Below are positions 59,813 through 61,158 of a stretch of 64,000 bases of DNA, one piece after another. A program made the translations under genes and the position numbers. The DNA is taken from positions 1 to 64,000 of the forward strand of contig CACBRW010000002.1 of assembly GCA_902541745.1 (NCBI GenBank). Reading direction: 5' to 3'. The notes below the pieces were generated by a model. It saw nothing but the letters and a program-made list of their open reading frames with translations, did not search any database and was not told where the DNA came from. This DNA comes from an uncultured Pelagibacteraceae bacterium (lineage in GTDB: Bacteria; Pseudomonadota; Alphaproteobacteria; Pelagibacterales; Pelagibacteraceae). How positions within the stretch are numbered: position 1 is the stretch's first letter; each line of letters opens with the position of its first letter.

Positions 59813-60464
59813 AATAATATTAATTTATTTTTTTTTATTAATAATTATTGCGTCAATTAATAATAATAATTTGAATAATCTAAAATTTGATCAAATAAAA
59901 AATGTTGAAATATTAGGATTGGATAAAAAAGAAAATAATATTCTTTTAACAAAAATTCAAAATTTAAAATTAGGAAATATATTCTCGCTAAACTCAAATG
60001 AAATTGAAAAATTAATTGAATCTAATTCATTAGTTGAAAGATATAAAGTATTTAAAAAATATCCGAATAAAATAGAAATAAAAATTCAGAAAACAGAATT
60101 CTTGGCAAAAATAAATGATGATGGAAAAATTTTTATTATAGGTTCAAATGGAAAACTAACACCAGACAAATTAAAATATAATGACCTACCTTTTATTTTT
60201 GGCAAACCTGATATAATTGAATTTCTTAAATTTAAAAAAGTGATAGATGAATCTAAATTTTCTTTTCAACAAATTGATGATTTATATTTTTTTCCTTCAA
60301 AAAGATGGGATCTAAAGCTTAAAAATAATATTTTGTTAAAATTACCAAACCGATTAAATCTAGAGACTATAAATAATGTGTATAACTTTTTAGAAAATTA
60401 TAATGGAAAAAATTTCAATATTGTTGATGCTAGATTAGAAAATCAAATTATTTTACATGAATAA
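59793..60464 (+). CDS. ftsQ: Cell division protein FtsQ
   Basis: Bitopic divisome protein. It has a short basic cytoplasmic tail, a transmembrane helix (about residues 8-23), a POTRA-like domain ('FDQIKNVEILGLDKKENNILLTKIQNLKLGNIFSLN...VERYKVFKKYPNKIEIKIQKTEFLAKI') and a beta domain with 'WDLKLKNNILLKLPN'. At 223 aa it is shorter than most FtsQ (about 270-300). It starts 20 bp inside ddl and ends 8 bp inside the FtsA-like gene. Confidence 0.88.
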   Translation: MHQRKSKIILIYFFLLIIIASINNNNLNNLKFDQIKNVEILGLDKKENNILLTKIQNLKLGNIFSLNSNEIEKLIESNSLVERYKVFKKYPNKIEIKIQKTEFLAKINDDGKIFIIGSNGKLTPDKLKYNDLPFIFGKPDIIEFLKFKKVIDESKFSFQQIDDLYFFPSKRWDLKLKNNILLKLPNRLNLETINNVYNFLENYNGKNFNIVDARLENQIILHE

Positions 60465-61158
60465 AGAAGTTGAACTAGAAATTTATTTAGTAGTATCAAC
60501 AAAAAAATTTGGAATATATTTATTTGATAAATATGAACTTAAAAACTTGTATAAAGATGAATTAGTTTTTAATGAAAAAATAAATTCTATCAATTTTAAT
60601 AATTTAAAAAAATTTCTTGATAAAAATATTTTTAAAATTGAGAAGATAAGTAGAAAATTTGTTGAAAATATATTTATCATATTTGATGATCAGAAAATAT
60701 TTAACTTGCAAATAGGGATTAAAAAAAAAAATTATAACTTTAAAATAAAAAGAGAATATCTTCAAAATTATCTCATTGATGCTAAAGATTTATTTATGGA
60801 AAATTATCAAACTGAAAAAATTATGCATATGATAGTTAATAAATATACTTTTGACGGTAAAAGCTATGCTTCATTACAAGATAATATAGAATGTCAAAAC
60901 GTTGCATTAGAAATTCAATTTAAATCAATTTCATATAATAAAATTTATGAACTAAATAAAATTCTAGAAAATTATCAAATAAAAATAACCAAGTTTATAG
61001 ATGGAAGCTATGTAAAAAATTTCATTAATGAAGATGCTAAATTAATTGAAATGGCTCATAAAATTTTAAATGGATATAATGAAAATGAGGTAATGTTTGT
61101 GTCAAAAAACCCTAAAAAACTTAATTTTTTTGAAAAATTTTTTCAATTATTTAGTTAA
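60457..61158 (+). CDS. Short FtsA-like protein lacking the ATPase half
   Basis: A 233-aa protein in the ftsA slot between ftsQ and lpxC. Residues about 65-185 resemble the FtsA 1C/SHS2 region: a strand 'KFVENIFIIFDD', then 'LIDAKDLFMENYQTEKIMHMIVNKYTFDG' like the FtsA 'A...r.ilh.ip..y.lDg' block, then 'VALEIQFKSISYNKIYELNKILENYQIKITKFI'. The phosphate and adenosine motifs of the actin fold are absent. The last residues (about 219-233, KKLNFFEKFFQLFS) could form an amphipathic membrane helix as in FtsA. The call rests on synteny and weak pattern similarity. Confidence 0.6.
   Translation: MNKEVELEIYLVVSTKKFGIYLFDKYELKNLYKDELVFNEKINSINFNNLKKFLDKNIFKIEKISRKFVENIFIIFDDQKIFNLQIGIKKKNYNFKIKREYLQNYLIDAKDLFMENYQTEKIMHMIVNKYTFDGKSYASLQDNIECQNVALEIQFKSISYNKIYELNKILENYQIKITKFIDGSYVKNFINEDAKLIEMAHKILNGYNENEVMFVSKNPKKLNFFEKFFQLFS

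What the first reader, a model, noticed from the sequence alone, without database searches (positions are those of the whole stretch)
60457..61158. Minimal FtsA-like protein without the ATP-binding half
The gene in the ftsA slot (ftsQ before, lpxC after) has only 233 codons, against roughly 400 or more for FtsA. Visible similarity is limited to the 1C/SHS2-type middle region and a C-terminal amphipathic helix (KKLNFFEKFFQLFS). The actin-fold phosphate and adenosine loops and domains 2A/2B are absent. No second frame can hide them, because lpxC starts 63 bp later. In known structures the FtsZ tail docks on 2B, yet FtsZ here keeps its C-terminal docking peptide. This suggests a stripped membrane tether with a different contact to FtsZ.
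Basis: partly seen in the sequence, partly recalled or inferred. Interest (0 to 1): 0.85.

Follow-up and report, generated by a model that had tools for sequence, protein, structure and literature searches.

The report
FtsA cut down to one lobe
In one genus of SAR11 bacteria, many species carry a cell-division gene ftsA from which the stretch for one whole half of the protein is missing, the half that in model bacteria binds FtsZ and helps bind ATP, and the rest is predicted to fold as the other half, which likely acts as a simple membrane-bound adaptor.

Summary
ORF 60457-61158 (233 codons) sits in the ftsA slot, between ftsQ and lpxC, of a SAR11-type genome. It is a homologue of FtsA: profile comparison with nine long slot FtsAs of relatives gives 99.8% (FtsQ control 0.1%), and the 19 best PDB matches of its AlphaFold model (pLDDT 83.7) are FtsA. 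One internal block, about 140 residues in the nearest long forms and by homology 2A/2B, is absent. The phosphate-1 motif is kept by 0 of 44 short and 27 of 28 same-genus long forms. In the genus, 69 slot frames are short and 46 long (136 hits in 201 genomes); no intact short frame was found outside it. dN/dS is 0.10-0.38. No second FtsA, SepF or ZipA was found; FtsZ keeps its EIPAFLRRQKN tail. Likely mechanism: an ATP-free, non-filamentous membrane adaptor of the divisome; how FtsZ is held is untested. Neighbour genes imply at least four short/long changes, but FtsA's own tree conflicts with them, so repeated excision and recombination both remain open. My paper searches listed no report of it. 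New variant of a known kind.

The parts
60457..61158 (+). short ftsA (233 aa), lobe-1-only FtsA
   Evidence: ORF; homology; predicted fold
60457..60693 (+). N-terminal part of subdomain 1A (residues 1-79): three strands, helix, strand; phosphate-1 motif lost
   Evidence: secondary structure of the model; alignment; motif count. Boundary read from the model by eye, approximate
60694..60972 (+). subdomain 1C (SHS2-type), residues about 80-172
   Evidence: aligned to FtsA; SHS2_FTSA matches at E <= 0.1 in 11 of 32 short forms, not in the window's own. Boundary approximate
60973..61068 (+). C-terminal part of subdomain 1A (residues 173-204): strand and last helix; the junction lies inside
61021..61023 (+). 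junction where long forms carry lobe 2 (2A/2B): long-form profile position 183 is followed by position 324
   Evidence: two profile matches, 60712-61023 and 61021-61152, overlapping by 3 bp
61069..61125 (+). linker, residues 205-223 (pLDDT under 50 at 218-223)
61126..61155 (+). C-terminal helix (224-231 in the model), likely membrane-binding; conserved motif FFEKFF..F
   Evidence: (hydrophobic moment 0.47); pLDDT in the 40s there
59793..60464 (+). ftsQ (context)
61222..62142 (+). lpxC (context)
   Evidence: name from my reading of the translation
44699..46180 (+). ftsZ; C-terminal peptide EIPAFLRRQKN encoded at 46145-46177

Best explanation
This is an ftsA gene without the stretch that encodes lobe 2 (subdomains 2A and 2B); the remaining protein is predicted to fold as lobe 1 (1A and 1C) with a likely membrane-binding tail helix, and it would work as an ATP-free, non-filament-forming membrane adaptor of the division machinery that likely also holds FtsZ, through a relocated contact. 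Shown by sequence: position in the ftsA slot, homology to slot FtsA of sister species, absence of one internal block that by homology contains 2A/2B, loss of the phosphate-1 motif, purifying selection, unchanged FtsZ tail. Predicted: the lobe-1 fold. Inferred: no ATP binding (phosphate-1 motif, phosphate-2 and adenosine segments all missing), no FtsA-type protofilament (its longitudinal contact uses IIA and IIB, PMC7613929), membrane binding by the tail, recruitment of downstream division proteins by 1C (as in E. coli). Untested guess: the contact to FtsZ.
Against: In model bacteria the site lost here is the one needed for FtsZ binding, so the protein may not hold FtsZ at all. No FtsN-like protein was seen: the six SPOR loci read are, by my reading, RlpA-like lipoproteins. 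The tail helix has low pLDDT and only an ordinary hydrophobic moment (mean z 0.84 against shuffles; 15 of 44 over 1). Short forms mostly diverge faster than same-genus long forms at equal lpxC identity (8 of 10 shared bins, e.g. 35% against 52% at 0.75, 224 and 16 pairs; the opposite in 2 bins), which fits a partly relaxed role. Nothing was tested at the bench.
Confidence: 0.6

Rival explanations
1. Adaptor only: lobe 1 recruits downstream division proteins at the membrane, and FtsZ is tethered by something else, such as an FzlC-like or unknown alphaproteobacterial anchor that binds the same FtsZ tail.
For: 2B, the known FtsZ site, is gone; the FtsZ tail is equally conserved in short- and long-form genomes, as if another partner keeps it; 1C is the recruiting part in E. 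coli (passage).
Against: No alternative anchor found: SepF 0 of 30, ZipA 0 of 30, FtsX_ECD 0 of 24 (the FtsX control did not ring in Caulobacter, so that test is weak). FzlC was not searched.
Confidence: 0.35
2. Decaying remnant: FtsA is on its way out in these streamlined genomes and the short gene has little function.
For: Mostly faster divergence than long forms; two of the 46 short slots read have a broken frame (L013, L085).
Against: dN/dS 0.10-0.38 in 12 pairs; 69 short frames of full length in the genus sample; E62 and H124 invariant in the 18 short and long forms; a confident fold.
Confidence: 0.05
3. A non-homologous protein replaced FtsA in the slot.
For: The window protein alone has no Pfam and no FtsA NCBIfam match.
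Against: Profile match to slot FtsAs 99.8%, FtsA as the only solved structures matched under E 0.1, FtsA as the best fold, and a same-genus short form (G083) whose two halves match the long form at E 7.7e-39 and 2.6e-13.
Confidence: 0.01

Closest known systems
FtsA (E. coli 7Q6D, V. maritimus 7Q6F/7Q6I, T. maritima 1E4F/4A2A)
   Same: 1A and 1C in the predicted fold, about 200 aligned residues; a C-terminal helix (amphipathic and membrane-binding in FtsA, passage)
   Different: 2A and 2B, the phosphate-2 and adenosine segments and the phosphate-1 motif are absent; 233 aa against about 400
Long-form FtsA of other Pelagibacterales
   Same: Same slot; in one lineage nearly the same C-terminal tail
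   Different: 368-419 aa in the intact ones read; has lobe 2; phosphate-2 motif already weak there
GspL/EpsL cytoplasmic domain (4PHT, 1W97, 1YF5)
   Different: Type II secretion; keeps a second RNase-H-like domain (recalled); anchored by a transmembrane helix (recalled)
E. coli FtsA with subdomain 2B deleted (laboratory construct)
   Same: Lacks 2B (passage in PMC4281207)
   Different: Made in the laboratory and reported there not to interact with FtsZ and to cause filamentation; here 2A is gone too and the bacteria live with it
SepF and ZipA (other FtsZ membrane anchors)
   Same: Possible functional role
   Different: Unrelated families; found in 0 of 30 genomes of the genus

Membership tests
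FtsA | Sequence homology to FtsA | tested here: met
   with FtsQ control; not detectable with single-sequence Pfam or NCBIfam scans of the window protein
FtsA | ftsA position after ftsQ in the dcw cluster | tested here: met
FtsA | Subdomain 1C (SHS2 insert) | tested here: met
   Model; PF02491 matched by 11 of 32 short forms at E <= 0.1, not by the window protein
FtsA | Subdomain 1A | tested here: met
   (model 4-206 to FtsA 6-388); predicted structure only
FtsA | Subdomains 2A and 2B (PF14450 region) | tested here: not met
   Absent from the gene; the one PF14450 match in the genome is MreB by my reading
FtsA | Actin-type nucleotide site | tested here: not met
   [DE]xG 0 of 44 short forms; phosphate-2 and adenosine segments lie in the missing block
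FtsA | C-terminal amphipathic membrane helix | tested here: inconclusive
   Conserved sequence, helix predicted at low pLDDT, moment 0.47, mean z 0.84; binding not testable here
FtsA | Binds the FtsZ C-terminal peptide | not testable with these tools
   No co-folding tool; known site (2B) is absent
GspL/EpsL cytoplasmic domain | Encoded with type II secretion genes | tested here: not met
   dcw cluster context
SepF | Match to PF04472 | tested here: not met
   No match of the window protein to any Pfam family; SepF 0 of 30 genomes

The most novel reading that the evidence does not exclude
SAR11 bacteria cut lobe 2 out of FtsA several times over and run the divisome on a lobe-1-only FtsA: a membrane adaptor that binds no nucleotide, forms no protofilament, and docks the unchanged FtsZ tail on a new site in 1A/1C. 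FtsA's ATP cycle and filaments are then dispensable for division in wild bacteria.
Probability: 0.3. Interest if true: 0.92.

Novelty: new variant of a known kind. Interest (0 to 1): 0.8.

Why it matters
Why FtsA is an actin, and whether its ATP binding and filaments are needed to connect FtsZ with septal wall synthesis, is an open question. Here closely related bacteria carry either a full FtsA or one with a whole lobe missing, in the same operon and with much the same FtsZ tail. That is a natural domain-deletion experiment in an abundant lineage: the part that both kinds keep (1A, 1C, tail) is the candidate for the indispensable function, and the part that comes and goes (2A/2B, ATP) the candidate for a dispensable one. 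It also warns annotation pipelines: the window protein is called FtsA by neither of the two libraries tried (Pfam, NCBIfam).

Tried and rejected
Second copy of FtsA: the one PF14450 match in the window's genome (82% complete) is MreB by my reading, with mreC-like and mreD-like frames after it. In 39 genus genomes, those known or 66 to be short-form have a single match in a frame of MreB length (344-359 aa; not read, except in G000) or none (G097, G296), while known long-form genomes such as G102, G136, G182 and G074 have two; long-form G306 has only the slot match. A long-form profile finds no lobe 2 elsewhere in nine short-form genomes at E <= 1; G093 gave no match at all.

Alternative anchors: SepF 0 of 30, ZipA 0 of 30, FtsX_ECD 0 of 24; ZapA is present in 23 of 24. 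FtsN by SPOR: matches in 8 of 19 genomes; the six loci read are lipoproteins, RlpA-like by my reading.

Missing gene: of ten genomes that I chose among those without a match, seven also lack an lpxC match, so the region is likely missing from the assembly; G043 and G069 carry long forms and G170's slot is cut by a contig end. The other unmatched genomes were not followed up.

Single origin of the short form: a 3-gene tree (92 slots) needs 3 changes (at least 2 forced) and does not reject one clade (p 0.20). The 15-gene neighbour tree (40 genomes, 5833 columns, five of them under half filled) needs 4, all forced by branches with SH-aLRT of at least 95, and rejects one clade of all short forms (p 0.0003), of clades b+c (p 3e-6) and of a2+b+c (p 2e-74); clade b alone is not rejected (p 0.40). 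I named b and the sub-groups after seeing the trees, which the test does not allow for. Against a simple reading as four cuts: the tree of FtsA's own shared columns (229-233) does not reject one short clade (p 0.39, 0.21) and strongly rejects the neighbour-gene topology (delta lnL 129, p 5e-59). So repeated excision and spread of alleles by recombination are both open; rapid evolution of short forms may also mislead that tree. The 15-gene and 3-gene trees differ in the placing of some lineages (e.g. G168). Nearly all are quick-search trees under LG+G4.

Structure of a long form for side-by-side comparison: never obtained.

Literature: eight searches, among them 'SAR11 + FtsA' (6 papers), 'Pelagibacter + FtsA + cell division' (7 papers) and 'truncated FtsA' (2 papers), listed nothing whose title or abstract start describes a short FtsA in SAR11. 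Searches showed only 20 of 1,060 and 10 of 101 papers. Of the Pelagibacter papers I saw passages of two (PMC2877005, PMC9275681), neither about FtsA length; the rest I saw as listings. Searches were on FzlC and GspL and gave nothing that I used. Subscription journals and preprints are not in the library.

Rows dropped: in the tree, duplicate or partial slots (L101, L094, L037, L062, L100) and slots without a readable ftsQ (L008, L025, L061, L067, L091); also L013, L085, L096 and L063; for the FtsA tree L024, L081 and L075; G078. The structure alignment A4 holds 94 of the 193 proteins listed; P0121 (internal duplication) was left out. A5 holds 40 of the 120 listed.

Full report
WHAT IS THERE. 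The window's genome has 1.07 Mb in 55 contigs and is rated 82% complete. The dcw cluster runs mraZ-ftsZ-rsmH-...-ftsI-murEF-mraY-murD-ftsW-murG-murC-murB-ddl-ftsQ-ORF233-lpxC-bamD (names from my reading of the translations, backed by Pfam for ftsQ, ftsZ and bamD). ORF 60457-61158 has 233 codons, overlaps ftsQ by 8 bp and ends 63 bp before lpxC.

IT IS A FAMILY, NOT AN ACCIDENT. A protein search gives 1474 homologues at E <= 1e-3 among 2075 candidates; the 120 listed are 231-235 aa. In a family-wide sample 58 of 99 genomes match: same-genus matches are mostly short, with two of about 370 aa, and matches in other genera lie in frames of 393-430 aa, apart from weak matches in G024, G072 (a second one) and G094. 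In the genus, 136 of 201 genomes match the joint profile: 69 have frames of 220-246 aa, 46 of 370 aa or more, one of 319 (not examined) and 20 under 220 (counted from the table); at least nine of the 20 lie at a contig end by their coordinates, and G078 and G236 have broken frames. Read directly, the ftsQ-lpxC distance is 716-774 bp in 46 slots and 1134-1310 bp in 46 others, with nothing in between. At order level 134 of 147 genomes match, and outside the genus the only frames under 370 aa are G018 (216 aa, at a contig start) and G019 (320 aa). So the short form is confined, in these samples, to one genus and coexists there with the long form.

WHAT WAS LOST. Aligned with long forms, short forms run from the N-terminus to just before the strand that carries the phosphate-2 motif, skip to the last 1A helix, and go on to the tail. 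A profile of one group of long forms (369 positions) matches the short gene of G083 at positions 1-185 and 326-369, which abut base to base in the DNA, and the window gene at 80-183 and 324-368, which overlap by 3 bp. So about 140 residues are absent. By homology they contain the phosphate-2 loop, 2B and the adenosine loop (the subdomain limits are recalled from FtsA structures). The phosphate-1 motif [DE]xG, which lies in the retained part, is lost as well: 0 of 44 short forms have it, against 27 of 28 long forms of the genus and 10 of 16 of other genera.

IT IS UNDER SELECTION. dN/dS (Nei-Gojobori) is 0.10-0.38 in 12 short pairs and 0.05-0.36 in 4 long pairs, chosen by me as close pairs. The short forms nevertheless mostly diverge faster: in 8 of 10 shared bins of lpxC identity the shared part is less alike in short than in same-genus long pairs (at 0.75: 35% in 224 pairs against 52% in 16); in 2 bins it is the other way round.

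THE REST OF THE DIVISION KIT. No second FtsA: one PF14450 match, MreB by my reading, in the window's genome, and no lobe 2 elsewhere in nine short-form genomes. SepF 0 of 30, ZipA 0 of 30, FtsX_ECD 0 of 24, ZapA 23 of 24. FtsZ ends in EIPAFLRRQKN in 16 of 17 short-form and 14 of 16 long-form genomes in which ftsZ was read; the other short one has a final S, the other two long ones (another genus) end in EIPAFLRKQKF; 7 of 40 regions had no ftsZ.

HOW OFTEN. On the tree of 15 neighbouring genes without ftsA, the short/long state changes at least four times, and holding the short forms together is rejected. FtsA's own shared columns cannot reject one short clade but reject the neighbour tree strongly. 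In one lineage (L007, L033, L034, L039, L052) the short forms share the tail KQEV...GFFE[KR]LFHFFK with neighbouring long forms and join them in the FtsA tree (SH-aLRT 94; bootstrap 76 with fewer rows), as expected of a separate cut there. I therefore read the pattern as recurrent loss, spread of short alleles by recombination, or both; the number of cuts is unresolved.

HOW IT LIKELY WORKS. In E. [quoted passage not shown] the FtsN tail binds in the IA-IC cleft, IC makes the lateral contacts of double filaments, and IIA-IIB the longitudinal contact (passages in PMC7613929). FtsA's tail helix binds the membrane and FtsA lies between membrane and FtsZ (passages in PMC5832921 and PMC4383033). 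The short form keeps the membrane-and-recruiting half and lacks the FtsZ-ATP-filament half. I infer a nucleotide-free, non-filamentous membrane adaptor of the divisome. Because no other known FtsZ anchor was found and the FtsZ tail is unchanged, I lean to the view that lobe 1 also holds FtsZ by a moved contact, but this step is a guess; an unknown anchor is nearly as likely. An FtsN that could use the retained cleft was not found either.

VERDICT. By descent it is FtsA; by content it fails two of the features that define the protein (2A/2B and the nucleotide site), so it is best called a lobe-1-only variant. None of the papers listed by the searches named under Tried and rejected reports it, as far as titles, abstract starts and the passages seen show.

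Noticed in passing
window 44230-47209: ftsZ stands near the head of the dcw cluster, between mraZ and rsmH, instead of after ftsA; the same order is seen in the related regions that reach that far.
   Followed up: partly
window 49205-52048: murE and murF form one 947-codon reading frame, a likely fusion.
   Followed up: no
L013 1353-2052 (G078, one contig, rated 100% complete): The short ftsA is split into frames of 75 and 174 aa at a run of seven T and eight A; sequencing error, true break or slippage cannot be told apart here.
   Followed up: partly
L085 (G236) and L096 (G108): Broken frames in the ftsA slot, one in a short and one in a long form.
   Followed up: no
long forms L016, L031, L019, L023, L026, L027: In other Pelagibacteraceae genera the nucleotide motifs of the long FtsA are degenerate too (phosphate-2 is INFGNELTT, ISFDKNKTS and the like; [DE]xG kept in 10 of 16), so loss of ATP binding may precede loss of the lobe.
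   Followed up: partly
genus genomes: The eight genomes with a SPOR match all carry the short ftsA, while the known long-form genomes of that sample gave none (short-form G093 and G312 gave none either); this may only reflect how far the family has diverged.
   Followed up: no
P0121: A 289-aa homologue with an internal tandem duplication of about 56 residues in the 1A/1C region.
   Followed up: no
L161: A MAG named Baikal-deep-G37 (by its name from Lake Baikal) carries a 235-aa short form, so the short form is likely not only marine.
   Followed up: no
L081/L115 (G168): A long-form lineage that groups with short clade a1 in the 15-gene tree but with other long forms in the 3-gene and FtsA trees.
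   Followed up: no
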